From Zeus faber (Eukaryota > Chordata > Actinopteri > Zeiformes > Zeidae): 64,000 nt of DNA. Made by a program: the position numbers and the translations under genes. The stretch lies in assembly GCA_960531495.1 (NCBI GenBank), contig OY482847.1, positions 24,139,013 to 24,203,012 of the forward strand. Direction: 5' to 3'. Shown in pieces: positions 27,250-46,104 of the stretch. The notes beneath the pieces were generated by a model. That model was not told the origin of the DNA, made no database searches, and saw nothing but the letters and a program-made list of their open reading frames with translations. Every line of letters begins with the position of its first letter. Position 1 is the stretch's first letter.

Positions 27250-28286
27250 TCAAGGATGCTTCTCTCGCTGTTCGATGAACCAACCGGACGGCCTGAAGTC
27301 CAATTTCAGCTGATCCATGACCCAGGGGTCCTTTTCAGCCCCCTCGATGAATTCTTCCAAAGAAATTTGACCTAAGTGAAACATTCGAGGAATAAACAAA
27401 AGATACAATGCAAGGAGGCAATCCAAAGGTTAATAGCGGTAACTGCTAAACTTACCGTCTTTATTCTTGTCAACGAATTCAAATATTCTGTCGCAGATGT
27501 CGTCGATGTTCTCTTGGGTCGACGCATCGTTCTGCTTCTTTAACTTGTAGATAATCTGCGAGCACAACAGAGAAAAAAAACATGTTATCGGCAAATGATT
27601 ATAAACATTTATTTATTCATTTATTTTCCGATTACAAAATGCAAGGAATAAGTACGTCCTCTTACCTTGACCAAATGTTGGACTTCGCGTCTGTCCAGGC
27701 GACCGTTTCCGTCCCTGTCGTAAACCTTGAAAGACCATCTCAGTTTGTCCTCCAGTTTTCCACGAAGAACGAGGTGCAGCGCTGCCACGTACTCCATGAA
27801 GTCTATTTTGTTGTCCTGCAAAAGGTGAGATAGAGAGATGGTCCTGTGAGGTCGGTAGACAGACAGATAGATAGACAGATAGACAGACAGACAGATAGAT
27901 GGATGGGTAGACAGACAGAAGAACAGCCAGCCAGACAGATAGATAGACAGATGGACAGACAGATAGATGGATGGATAGACAGACAGATAGATAGATAGAT
28001 GGACAGATAGACAGTAACTCTAACCCTAACCCTAATCCTCCGTAGATAGACGGGCAGACGGGTAGATAGACAGATGGGCAGGTACCTGATTGGTATCGAA
28101 TGATCGAAACACGTTTTCCATGTATGCAGACTCTTCTTCCATGGAGTTGCTGCTCACCCCAAAGATCCTCTTGAACTCGTGCAGGTGCAGGTTGCCGCTC
28201 GGACACTCGCTGGCGAACTTCCTGTAGAGTTCCTGAATGTTTTGAAGCGTCACTTCCTTCTCCTCATCGCTCTGTGCCTGACCCAT
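27250..28286 (-). CDS. Guanylate cyclase-activating/inhibitory protein, GCAP2/GCIP type (gene A)
   Basis: Four exons: 28086-28286, 27666-27815, 27456-27555 and 27250-27371. They join to 190 residues with the classical GCAP exon phases. GCAPs are EF-hand calcium sensors of photoreceptors that bind membrane guanylate cyclase, activating it at low calcium and inhibiting it at high calcium. MGQAQS at the start is a good N-myristoylation signal (Gly2, Ser6). EF1 is degenerate and carries the CPSG motif (residues 28-31), as in the family. EF2 ([12 protein letters not shown]), EF3 ([12 protein letters not shown]) and EF4 (D-K-N-K-D-G-Q-I-S-L-E-E) keep all ligand positions. The tail has the [14 protein letters not shown] motif, close to GCAP2. 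It is the last gene of a four-gene tandem. Intron 1 is mostly a GATA/GACA repeat. Assignment to a particular fish GCAP number is not possible by eye. Confidence 0.95.
27850..28078. repeat. GATA/GACA repeat filling intron 1 of GCAP gene A
   Basis: Interrupted (GATA)n and (GACA)n tract with a short telomere-like CTAACCCTAACCCTAAT at about 28019-28035. In gene sense it starts about 8 nt after the exon 1 donor. Confidence 0.9.
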
Positions 28287-28569
28287 CGCTCAATCCGAAT
28301 AGAAAAAAAAAACAGCGATTTAATGTAAAAAGACGATGATAAAAATACAAAACCCGGAGATGTTCCAAGGTTCCCCAACGCCCGCATAGTATGGGACTCC
28401 TCACAAGGCTTGTGACAGCGGCATAAGCCTGTTGTTAACCCTGTCTTAACCATTTCCAGATGGCTGCCAGACAAATCCAATTGCCTGTTTGCCACTTCAT
28501 CCAAATCCCTTGTGACGAAATACTCGTCTTTCTGAATAAACCTTTTCTGCTCCAGAGAAACTCTCACAA

Positions 28570-29005
28570 CTCCCTTAAGAAATAAATAAAGAAAGAAATT
28601 CAGACAGGAAGAAAGAAAGAAAGAAAGAAATTCAGACAGGAAGAAAGAAAGAAAGAAGTAAAGAAAAACAGACAAAAGACAGTCAGAAAGAAAGAAAGAA
28701 AGTCAAAGACAGAAAGAAAGAAAGAAATAAAGAAAGAAATTCAGACAGGAAGAAAGAAAGAAAGAAAGAAGGAAAGAAAGAAAGGAAATAAGAAAGAAAT
28801 AAAGAAATTCAGACAGAAAGAAAGATAAACACAGAAAGAAAGAAAGGAAGAGAGAAAGAAAGAAAGAAAGAAGGAAAAACAGACAAAAGACAGACAGAAA
28901 GAAAGAAAGAAAGAAAGAAAGAAAGAAAGACAAAGGCAGAAATAAATAAATAAATAAATAAAGAAAGAAAGAAATTCAGACAGAAAGAAAGAAAGAAAAA
29001 AGGTT
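28570..29005. repeat. (GAAA)n-rich polypurine tract
   Basis: More than 400 bp of GAAA units with recurring AATTCAGACAGGAAG interruptions, so the tract is partly a higher-order repeat. It lies 280-720 bp upstream of the start codon of GCAP gene A. Confidence 0.9.
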
Positions 29006-29039
29006 GATTTTTCCAGTTACCGAGAAGTTTGGCATACAG

Positions 29040-29165
29040 TATATTTGACAGTGATATGGGGAGATTTCAGCCAAAGAGAAGCCCCCGCCGAAGCTTTGAG
29101 GAAGATTACAGAGCGCTGACGTCAAGGCGGGGTCGAGGTTTAACTGTTGATCCACTGAGATCTGA
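29040..29165. promoter_or_regulatory. Candidate regulatory island upstream of GCAP gene A
   Basis: A GC-rich patch between simple repeats. It has a perfect CRE palindrome TGACGTCA at 29117-29124 and an AGATTA OTX/CRX-like motif just before it (about 29103). It is about 830 bp upstream of the gene A start. The position is suggestive, but function is inferred only from motif content. Confidence 0.25.
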
Positions 29166-29269
29166 GGTTTGTCCAGCCTCGTCTTGCTCTACTTGCAGGT
29201 TCAGAGTCCAGTGCTTCAGTGCACAGGATCAAAGAAGTCAAAACCAAAATACATTTTATTTCTGAGTTT

Positions 29270-43963: not shown

Positions 43964-44183
43964 TCAAAAATCACGCTTTTCCTGCTAGAATAAGCTGCAC
44001 TAGTCCAAGGCTTCCCTTGCTTAAAGCCAACGGTTAATCCCATGTTATTCACCCCGACGCGCTGCGGACTAGAACAGTCTTTAGCACTTCAAGCATGGGA
44101 ACCATCTCAGAAACCCCATCCCAAATCAGAGCGTCTTTCCCTCTATCCAGCGGAAAAAAAGGTTCCTTTCACTCCGCGCTCCT

Positions 44184-45934
44184 TCAGAAATGTGCACTCT
44201 TTCTTCTCTGTTCCAGAATCCACCCGTAGGGGTTCATGTCCAGTTGCAACATGTTCAGCACCCAGGGGTCTTCCTGTGCCCCCTTCATAAACTCATCCAT
44301 AGTGATATGACCTGCAGAGGAAACCCAACCAATCAATCAACCAATCAATCAATCAACCAATCAATCAATCATATTTATTTTGTACATTACAAGGGAGATG
44401 ATATAGGTGCATGAAATTGAGAGTATTGTACAATATCGGTTGATAAAAGAGAAAGATATGATATGATATGATAATATATGAAATTGATTATAATATAATA
44501 ATTGTATAGTATGATTAATGTCAAAATTCTTACCGTCTCCGTCGATGTCTACTGCCAGGAATATTCGATCGACAACCTCATCAATCGTCAGCGGGTTTTC
44601 CTCGAGCTCCTTCCTCGTTCCCTTTTTTATTCGATAGATACTCTGGGGAGAAAGACATCATTTCATTTAAATCATTTGACATCAACAACAAATGTATGTC
44701 AGTTGTACGTTGTTTGGATTTAGAACAGTAGGGAGTTTCCTGATTCAGTGAGTCAGGAATTAAAAGTAGCTTAACTTAATGCACTCAAGCACACTTACTT
44801 AGCAAGTGTATCTGGGTTAGTTATTTAGCTAAGTTAATTATGATTTCTTGATTCACCGTTAACAAGGGCCATTTTACATATAATAAACTTGAGATTCTAG
44901 AATCAACTCCAGATTCTAGCTGATAAAAACGACACCAATAAAGACGTCCATTTGGGCACGTTCAGTGCACAGGGGCAGTTTGTTTACATATTGCCAAAAC
45001 AACTTTTTTGGTTTAGGAAATTCTGCAGTATGATTTTTCAAAAGTAAAAATAACTATTATCCAATAATGTAATAATCCAAAGTATTTGTATAGTAATAAA
45101 AGTGTAATATATTTTATAGGTATCACAAAAGGTTATTTATAATACTCTTTTACTAAACGTGTGAAGAAATGATCGAAATATTAATTGCATTACATTTTTG
45201 CAGTTTATCTTGTTGTACATTGCTATGGTGTGACTGATTTACATTGTTTATTTTTTACACCATTTTTTAATACTTTAGTCTGTAGTGCTGCCGGTCCATG
45301 GACCTTAGCATTGCTCAAGCCAATCAAATGGCTCTTTCATAGTAGTGTATTTACAGAGTAGTGTATTGACGATAATAAGTATTGACTCAAAGGCCACAAA
45401 ATCAACACATATACTGTACATTCAGGCCAGACCTTGTGTTGGGTTTGACTTCTAAGCCGACTTACATCAATAATGGAGCGCAGTTCCCTCCTGTCCACGT
45501 AGCCGTTGCAGTCTTTGTCATAAACCTTAAAAGACCAGCGCAGCTTGTGCTCCAAGTCTCCCCGAAAAACCAGATTCAAGGCCGCCACAAACTCCAAGAA
45601 ATCAATGGTGTTATCCTGCAGAGTGAGATGAAAAGAGAAGAAAAAAATACAATCACAAAATTCGAAGCATCTCTGTGAGATTTGGTGTATTTACTGTATG
45701 ATTATTGAAGTCCCCGGCGTCATTGACTCTCACCCCATTCCTGTCAAACGCTCGAAACATGCACTCGGCATAATCCGATACCTCTCCTGTCGGATCCACC
45801 CCAAAAAAACGCTTGAACTCGTGCAGGAACAGCACTCCGCTCGGGCACTCCACCACAAACTTCTTGTACATGTCCTGCAGAGCTTTCACGTTGATCTCCT
45901 CATCGTTCTTCTCAGTCTGCTGGTTCTGCCCCAT
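44184..45934 (-). CDS. Guanylate cyclase-activating/inhibitory protein, closest to GCAP2 (gene D)
   Basis: Exons 45734-45934, 45466-45615, 44534-44642 and 44184-44311 join to 195 residues. It starts [12 protein letters not shown]1 is degenerate (CPSG at residues 30-33, then [12 protein letters not shown]). EF2 ([12 protein letters not shown]), EF3 ([12 protein letters not shown]) and EF4 (D-I-D-G-D-G-H-I-T-M-D-E) keep the acidic ligands; EF3 has Cys where the family usually has Gly at position 4. Of the four it is most like vertebrate GCAP2: AALNLV, LEHKLRW, VVDRIFL, then [25 protein letters not shown] tail features, including the basic QRRKSA end. It is first in the array in transcription order and has the clearest promoter. 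Expected role: calcium-dependent control of retinal guanylate cyclase. Confidence 0.95.
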
Positions 45935-45950
45935 GGTCGGTTTTTACAAT

Positions 45951-45968
45951 TTAACAACTTTTAGCCAT
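45951..45968 (-). other. Short upstream ORF (MAKSC) in the 5' leader of GCAP gene D
   Basis: ATG at 45968 in the strong context ACCATGG, five codons, then TAA at 45951, 17 nt before the main ATG at 45934. It lies inside the leader expected from the TATA box at 46032-46038. Confidence 0.5.
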
Positions 45969-46031
45969 GGTTCTTTTTCCAGTGAGAGGCCGTGGTTGGT
46001 GCTGCCGTCACTCTCCACGTAATGGCCTCTG

Positions 46032-46104
46032 TTTATAACCCCTGAGGGGTCAGAAGATACCTCCCGCAGATTGTGATTAGTGTGGCCACTGTCTGCTCTA
46101 ATCT
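46032..46104 (-). promoter_or_regulatory. Promoter of GCAP gene D: TATA box and OTX-like sites
   Basis: TTATAAA on the minus strand at 46032-46038, which predicts a start near 46005 and an unspliced leader of about 70 nt. Upstream are two TAATC-type motifs: CTAATC (46075-46080, minus) and AGATTA (46099-46104, minus). The layout resembles a photoreceptor promoter. Confidence 0.55.

What the first reader, a model, noticed from the sequence alone, without database searches (positions are those of the whole stretch)
27250..46040. Cluster holding both arms of photoreceptor cGMP control
Four complete GCAP genes and one PDE6 gamma gene lie within 19 kb on the same strand, in the order D, C, PDE6 gamma, B, A. 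GCAPs set cGMP synthesis; PDE6 gamma sets cGMP breakdown. The gene structures are seen directly. The family roles are established for GCAPs and PDE6 gamma. That the genes are co-regulated or form a working unit is inference. I am not aware of a described cluster of this composition.
Basis: partly seen in the sequence, partly recalled or inferred. Interest (0 to 1): 0.85.

Follow-up and report, generated by a model that had tools for sequence, protein, structure and literature searches.

The report
GCAP2-type gene array holding a PDE6-gamma copy
What looks like a fish chromosome carries four side-by-side genes for eye calcium sensors that boost cGMP production, with a shortened, diverged gene for the protein that blocks cGMP breakdown sitting among them; the genes look real, but nothing yet shows that they are run as a unit.

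Summary
On the minus strand, 27250-45934, lie four complete four-exon GCAP genes and one three-exon PDE6 gamma gene; transcription order is A, B, PDE6g, C, D. All four GCAPs are GCAP2-type: each scores 40 to 105 bits higher to a GCAP2 structure than to the best GCAP1 one. The likely GCAP2 gene itself is on another contig, C15. The array resembles the GCAP2-A/GCAP2-B tandem pair of spotted gar (PMC6170504), enlarged to four, beside a gene I take for GOLGB1 from a recalled sequence. The PDE6 gamma gene is one of eight copies found in this genome. In an unrooted tree it falls on the side of the cone-type (PDE6H-like) copies (100/99), keeps the last coding intron that those copies lack, has an intact frame, and lost four residues in and just before a glycine-rich stretch linked to transducin binding. 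No somatostatin-receptor match was found on its contig, so it probably moved in as a DNA copy. Co-regulation is unsupported: OTX/CRX motifs are not enriched upstream (P about 0.3). Conservation in other fish could not be tested.

The parts
45734..45934 (-). GCAP A (GCAP2-type) exon 1
   Evidence: gene model; E 7.7e-74 to GCAP2 (1jba)
45466..45615 (-). GCAP A exon 2
44534..44642 (-). GCAP A exon 3
44184..44311 (-). GCAP A exon 4 with stop
41163..41363 (-). GCAP B (GCAP2-type) exon 1
   Evidence: E 1.3e-59 to GCAP2 (1jba)
40724..40873 (-). GCAP B exon 2; its splice donor reads GC, not GT
39806..39917 (-). GCAP B exon 3
39473..39627 (-). GCAP B exon 4 with stop
36470..36573 (-). PDE6 gamma coding exon 1
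36323..36351 (-). PDE6 gamma coding exon 2 (shortened, glycine-rich region)
   Evidence: alignment
36104..36180 (-). PDE6 gamma coding exon 3 (C-terminal inhibitory end) with stop
33920..34114 (-). GCAP C (GCAP2-type) exon 1
   Evidence: E 1.6e-61 to GCAP2 (1jba)
33665..33814 (-). GCAP C exon 2
33113..33209 (-). GCAP C exon 3
32339..32460 (-). GCAP C exon 4 with stop
28086..28286 (-). GCAP D (GCAP2-type) exon 1
   Evidence: E 3.4e-59 to GCAP2 (1jba)
27666..27815 (-). GCAP D exon 2
27456..27555 (-). GCAP D exon 3
27250..27371 (-). GCAP D exon 4 with stop
3827..17015 (-). neighbouring gene: N-terminal exons of a GOLGB1 (giantin)-like golgin, same strand, downstream of GCAP D; outermost colinear tblastn pieces, gene continues left into L015
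   Evidence: four colinear pieces to a recalled GOLGB1 (E 1.3e-4, 1.9e-4, 0.034, 2.4) and one piece out of order (E 0.77); 2717-aa open frame in L015, E 2e-111 at 29% identity to the same recalled sequence; no piece at E <= 0.01 in L016

Best explanation
An old tandem array of four GCAP2-type calcium-sensor genes (probably the GCAP2-A/GCAP2-B kind) next to a GOLGB1-like gene, into which an intron-bearing DNA copy of a cone-type PDE6 gamma (PDE6H-like) gene was placed long ago. Shown: gene models, families, intact frames, twelve of twelve EF-hand loops meeting the calcium-binding residue rule, the copy's place on the PDE6H side of the tree, retention of the last coding intron, loss of four residues in and just before the glycine-rich region. 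Inferred: the GCAPs activate retinal guanylyl cyclase when calcium falls; the PDE6 gamma protein still plugs the PDE6 catalytic site through its conserved C-terminus but responds more weakly, or differently, to transducin because residues matching 59-62 (with Thr62) are reduced to one Glu. The adjacency is most likely historical, each gene being controlled on its own.
For: Gene models and splice sites. GCAP2 beats the best GCAP1 chain by 40 to 105 bits for each of the four proteins. Tree of 14 rows with six other GCAP-like genes of this genome: six-row GCAP2 group 98/96; B, C, D together 100/99; A with B, C, D 84/81. EF2-4 residue rule met in 12 of 12 loops and ECPSG present in 4 of 4. Silent sites near saturation (ps 0.63-0.83) against pn 0.23-0.31 between GCAPs, and ps 0.70-0.83 against pn 0.20-0.30 for the PDE6 gamma copy against six other copies: old, and constrained as pairs. 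PDE6 gamma lies on the side of the PDE6H-type copies in a split with 100/99. Its intron 2 splits the same Asp codon as in the C20 pde6g gene; the C4 and C11:11.96 copies lack it. No SSTR match on C3; the seven matches lie on C11 (three), C22, C15, C20 and C4. Only coding exons are alike between the copy's locus and the other loci, apart from 15-20-base matches at E 0.56. Published: GCAP2-A and GCAP2-B head-to-tail in gar, and PDE6G/H/I in another paralogon.
Against: The placement of A with B, C, D is not strongly supported (84/81). No GCAP2-A, GCAP2-B or PDE6I sequence was on hand, so subfamily naming rests on exclusion. The PDE6 gamma tree is unrooted, has five different sequences, 69 residues for this copy and one long branch; its sister place to the C4 copies (85/88) conflicts with intron loss unless the loss happened twice. 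Pairwise pn/ps says little about constraint on this copy alone, and its lower GC3 (0.64 against 0.80-0.87) may inflate ps. The SSTR search used a recalled query and scored 111 of 637 candidates. By simple arithmetic an adjacency of this one pair of families is only about a 1-in-1000 event, so selection for linkage is not excluded.
Confidence: 0.68

Rival explanations
1. A co-regulated cassette: the five genes share a regulatory domain and are expressed together in one photoreceptor or pineal cell type, so that linkage balances cGMP synthesis and breakdown.
For: Same strand, 18.7 kb, both arms of one pathway. Zebrafish members of both families are listed as rod or cone genes, pde6i without a cell type (PMC8370914 passages). 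Placement of one family inside the other is about a 1-in-1000 event for a pre-chosen pair by simple arithmetic from the copy sites found.
Against: No enrichment of OTX/CRX motifs upstream. Many pairs of phototransduction families exist, so some adjacency is not surprising. No expression or contact data.
Confidence: 0.13
2. The PDE6 gamma gene is the third 2R paralogue PDE6I in its old place, and the GCAP array moved next to it.
For: It keeps both coding introns and is fast-evolving; PDE6I is weakly expressed in zebrafish and kept in few teleosts (PMC4906994). The tree is unrooted and holds no known PDE6I, so it does not exclude this.
Against: It lies on the PDE6H side of the 100/99 split. No SSTR match on C3, while PDE6I goes with SSTR5 in gar. 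The Glu reported at position 29 of zebrafish pde6i is Lys here by the alignment. The C11:3.71 Mb copy is another candidate.
Confidence: 0.1
3. The PDE6 gamma copy is a decaying, non-functional gene that merely looks intact.
For: Longest branch of its tree (0.4), lower GC3 than the PDE6H-type copies (0.64 against 0.80-0.87), loss of residues in the glycine-rich region.
Against: Frame and both splice-site pairs intact; both internal deletions keep frame; pn 0.20 against ps 0.73-0.83 to the four PDE6H-type copies, though pairwise values also reflect constraint on those copies.
Confidence: 0.12
4. Assembly artefact: the PDE6 gamma exons were joined into the GCAP array wrongly.
For: Only one assembly was available; reads were not.
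Against: No N in the window, 40-Mb contig, no long similarity outside exons to the other PDE6 gamma loci, no second close copy among the 15 candidates scored, the next best being at most 79% identical.
Confidence: 0.03

Closest known systems
GCAP2-A / GCAP2-B tandem pair of spotted gar LG27 (Lamb and Hunt 2018, PMC6170504)
   Same: GCAP2-like genes, head-to-tail, apart from the likely GCAP2 gene on another contig
   Different: Four genes instead of two, with a PDE6 gamma gene between the second and third; GOLGB1-like neighbour; orthology to A or B not established here
PDE6H-type cone inhibitory subunit genes of teleosts (Lagman 2016, PMC4906994)
   Same: Protein lies on their side of the tree; same layout of polycationic, glycine-rich and C-terminal regions
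   Different: Keeps the last coding intron that this genome's other PDE6H-type copies, and those of the teleosts outside zebrafish and cave tetra studied in that paper, lack; 69 aa; residues matching 59-62 reduced to one Glu; lies in a GCAP array, with no SSTR match on its contig
GUCA1A-GUCA1B tail-to-tail pair of tetrapods and gar
   Same: Clustered GCAP genes
   Different: That pair joins GCAP1 with GCAP2 tail-to-tail; here all four are GCAP2-type and on one strand

Membership tests
GCAP family (GCAP2 type) | EF2, EF3, EF4 loops with Asp1, Asp/Asn3, Asp/Asn/Ser5, Glu12; EF1 with CPSG | tested here: met
   12 of 12 loops and 4 of 4 ECPSG; residue rule from PMC6170504, CPSG signature recalled
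GCAP family (GCAP2 type) | closest to GCAP2 rather than GCAP1 or other calcium sensors | tested here: met
   bits to GCAP2 against best GCAP1: A 250.9/145.8, B 204.5/164, C 210.4/151.5, D 203.1/158.7; A's second-best chain is hippocalcin-like 1 at 150.5; GCAP2 group 98/96
GCAP family (GCAP2 type) | Gly2 with a favourable myristoylation context | tested here: inconclusive
   Gly2 in 4 of 4; Ser6 in C and D, Gln6 in A and B; context rule recalled, no predictor run
GCAP2-A / GCAP2-B subfamily | one clade apart from GCAP2 proper | tested here: inconclusive
   A+B+C+D 84/81, B+C+D 100/99; no reference GCAP2-A/B sequences at hand
GCAP family (GCAP2 type) | activation of retinal guanylyl cyclase at low calcium | not testable with these tools
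   needs protein assay
PDE6 gamma family | PF04868 above curated cut-off | tested here: met
   95.9 bits, cut-off 25, profile 17-82 of 82
PDE6 gamma family | conserved C-terminal inhibitory end | tested here: met
   [22 protein letters not shown] aligned to cone and rod P-gamma
canonical transducin-switched PDE6 gamma | complete glycine-rich region 55-62 with Thr62 | tested here: not met
   residues matching 59-62 replaced by one Glu; role of 55-62 and Thr62 from PMC10838916 passages
canonical transducin-switched PDE6 gamma | polycationic region 24-45 that binds GAFa | tested here: inconclusive
   present but with fewer Lys/Arg by eye, Thr35 position is Ala; binding role from PMC3997432 passages; no binding test
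PDE6I | linked to SSTR5 | tested here: not met
   0 of 7 SSTR-like matches at E <= 1e-60 on C3; recalled query, 111 of 637 candidates scored
co-regulated gene cassette | shared photoreceptor regulatory motifs above background | tested here: not met
   OTX/CRX TAATCY, P 0.29 and 0.31; true transcription starts unknown, motif recalled
co-regulated gene cassette | conserved linkage across fish and co-expression | not testable with these tools
   no relatives of this genome held; no expression data

The most novel reading that the evidence does not exclude
The array is a selected cGMP set-point locus: a cone-type PDE6 gamma paralogue with a shortened transducin-binding linker, acting as a weakly switchable brake on PDE6, sits in one regulatory domain with duplicated GCAP2-type cyclase activators, and all are used together in one specialised photoreceptor or pineal cell type.
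Probability: 0.1. Interest if true: 0.75.

Novelty: new variant of a known kind. Interest (0 to 1): 0.4.

Why it matters
It gives a concrete, testable case of linkage between the two opposing controls of photoreceptor cGMP, families that were placed in different ancestral chromosome blocks (PMC6170504). It also offers a natural PDE6 gamma variant that keeps the catalytic plug but has lost part of the glycine-rich region, useful for separating inhibition from transducin relief. The GOLGB1-like neighbour may help with an open question in PMC6170504, namely on which ancestral block GCAP3 and GCAP2-A/B lay, because GOLGB1 and GUCA1C both lie on human 3q13 (recalled). If the adjacency turns out to be historical only, the interest is modest.

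Tried and rejected
Looked for other fish sequences: the search for related loci with the GCAP alignment in genome contigs (193 pattern matches, none confirmed) and viral contigs (99, none confirmed) gave nothing. tRNA scan and Rfam scan at gathering scores of the window: none. Extra GCAP or PDE6 gamma copies in the window: tblastn at E <= 1 found only the exons of the five genes. Gene search in the right flank: in the 18 kb right of GCAP A and 40 kb beyond, I recognised no host gene among the long open frames, only retroelement-like ones (one search listed frames of 110 aa or more); three window frames there gave no Pfam hit, and L017, L018, L027, L028 were not put through Pfam. A left-flank coiled-coil frame, 4501-5070, hit only Herpes_UL25 below its cut-off (18.8 against 25 bits), which I take as a coiled-coil chance match. 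Co-regulation by OTX/CRX motifs: not supported at this test. A mixed GCAP1/GCAP2 set: rejected. PDE6I identity: disfavoured, not excluded. Structure prediction and fold search were not run; sequence matches to solved structures already settle the fold class.
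Full report
What is there. The window is vertebrate DNA, by its genes fish-like: C3:24139013-24203012 of an 803-Mb assembly in 153 contigs. On its minus strand lie four GCAP genes, each of four coding exons with the same exon pattern (exon 1 195-201 bases, exon 2 150 in all four, exon 3 97-112, exon 4 122-155), and a three-exon PDE6 gamma gene between the second and third of them along transcription. Of 14 introns 13 are GT-AG and one, intron 2 of GCAP B, is GC-AG. GCAP C exon 3, not obvious at first, is at 33113-33209. No transcripts were available.

What the GCAPs are. 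Protein identities among the four are 51-64%. Against solved structures each finds GCAP2 (1jba) first, by 40 to 105 bits over the best GCAP1 chain. Elsewhere in this genome I examined six GCAP-like loci, on C15, C21, C5, C14, C9 and C6; the 40 matches and the 40 also include other places, by identity probably other calcium sensors, that I did not examine. In a tree of 14 rows the C15 gene, 1jba and the C3 four form one group (98/96), B, C and D form a clade (100/99), and A joins them with 84/81; C15 and 1jba are not shown as a pair, though C15 is 62-81% identical to 1jba exon by exon. The plain reading is that C15 carries GCAP2 and C3 carries the GCAP2-A/GCAP2-B kind, which Lamb and Hunt found head-to-tail in spotted gar (section 2.4 read; passages). 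I had no reference sequences of that kind, so the name rests on exclusion. Twelve of twelve EF2-4 loops keep the calcium-binding residues.

What the PDE6 gamma gene is. The genome search found 16 matches that I group into eight copies at six sites: C3 (window), three close copies on C4, one on C20, three separate ones on C11. The window copy is 69 aa. In a tree of seven copies, five of them different (the C11:3.71 Mb copy left out because I could not model its middle exon), the one strong split, 100/99, sets the two PDE6G-like copies against C11:11.96, C4 and the window copy. That tree is unrooted and holds no known PDE6I. The window copy is at most 72% identical to another row (C4) and has the longest branch. 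The C4 and C11:11.96 copies have lost the last coding intron, as published for PDE6H genes of the teleosts studied other than zebrafish and cave tetra (PMC4906994 section read); the window copy keeps it, in the same codon as C20. This fits a copy made before the loss. The tree's finer placing with C4 (85/88) would need two losses, so that detail is unsure. Flanking DNA is not shared with the other loci beyond 15-20-base matches at E 0.56, and silent sites are near saturation (ps 0.70-0.83), so the copy is probably old; differing GC3 (0.64 against 0.80-0.87) may exaggerate this. Changed residues: the short N-terminus and Ala at the Thr35 place are shared with the C4 copies; peculiar to the window copy among the seven are loss of one Gly after Phe50 and replacement of residues 59-62 by one Glu. 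A cryo-EM study (PMC10838916, passages) ties residues 55-62 to transducin binding and Thr62 to a hydrogen bond with the catalytic subunit. The C-terminal plug is conserved.

Neighbourhood. Downstream of GCAP D, same strand, is a large coiled-coil gene. tblastn with a recalled GOLGB1 gives four colinear weak pieces in the window and one out of order, and E 2e-111 over a 2717-aa open frame in L015; the name is likely but rests on a recalled query. The right flank showed microsatellites and retroelement-like pieces and no host gene that I recognised.

How it probably arose. PDE6G, H and I sit with SSTR genes in gar, in another paralogon than the GCAPs. A search with a recalled SSTR2 found seven matches at E <= 1e-60, on C11 (three), C22, C15, C20 and C4, none on C3 (111 of 637 candidates scored). 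So the window copy most likely left the PDE6H region by DNA duplication and landed in the GCAP array. PDE6I in place remains a live minority reading.

Does it work as a unit? Nothing found here shows it. TAATCY sites in the 500 bases before the five ATGs number 3 against a background mean of 1.86 (P 0.29), and 5 against 3.67 in 1000 bases (P 0.31); the true transcription starts are unknown, so this is a weak test. By simple arithmetic from six PDE6 gamma sites and six GCAP sites, with about 20 kb counted round each in 803 Mb, the expected number of such adjacencies is about 0.001 for this pair; with the at least fourteen phototransduction families named in PMC6170504 (abstract) there are about 91 pairs, so roughly 0.1 adjacencies of some kind would arise by chance. 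This is suggestive but not decisive.

What is in print. Ten library searches and what I saw of eight papers did not describe a GCAP-PDE6 gamma cluster: sections and passages of PMC6170504 and PMC4906994, passages only of PMC8370914, PMC12210959, PMC8405809, PMC8329130, PMC3997432 and PMC10838916. Other listed papers were not opened. Imanishi 2004, which predicted eight GCAPs in pufferfish, is not held (known here only from reference lists), and supplementary tables were not open to me, so earlier notice cannot be excluded.

Change on checking. Holding the draft against the calls showed that the PDE6 gamma tree is unrooted and lacks PDE6I, and that pairwise pn/ps does not isolate this copy. I therefore raised the PDE6I rival from 0.08 to 0.10 and lowered the best explanation from 0.70 to 0.68.

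Verdict. A sound observation, a real and apparently undescribed arrangement, most likely the product of tandem duplication plus one old transposition; the notion of a working cluster is an open hypothesis, with the shortened PDE6 gamma linker as its most interesting testable part.

Noticed in passing
window 40716-40723 (- strand, GCAP B intron 2 donor): Donor reads AAG|GCGAGT: a GC-AG intron in an otherwise intact gene; a GT would be expected.
   Followed up: partly
L013 (C11:17862344-17863062 of the genome): A pde6g-like copy has ACG where the start ATG is expected, with the rest of the modelled frame intact.
   Followed up: partly
L014 (C11:3712876-3713887 of the genome): A divergent PDE6 gamma copy without a recognisable middle exon; possibly a pseudogene or a PDE6I remnant.
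   Followed up: no
L010 and L011 (C4:24913885-24925717 of the genome): Three close PDE6H-type copies encode identical proteins, one in reverse orientation.
   Followed up: partly
window 3827-17015 and L015 1849-9999 (- strand): A GOLGB1-like giantin gene follows the GCAP array; GOLGB1 and GUCA1C share human 3q13 (recalled), which may bear on the ancestral block of GCAP3 and GCAP2-A/B.
   Followed up: partly
window 8423-10637: LINE-like reverse transcriptase remnant (RVT_1 at 8423-8698), with 8753-9691 repeated at 9691-10637 at 83% identity.
   Followed up: partly
window 27676-27817 and 40734-40875: Exon 2 of B and D is 82% alike at DNA level (C and D 75%) although C and D are closer as whole proteins (64% against 58%); possible local gene conversion.
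   Followed up: no
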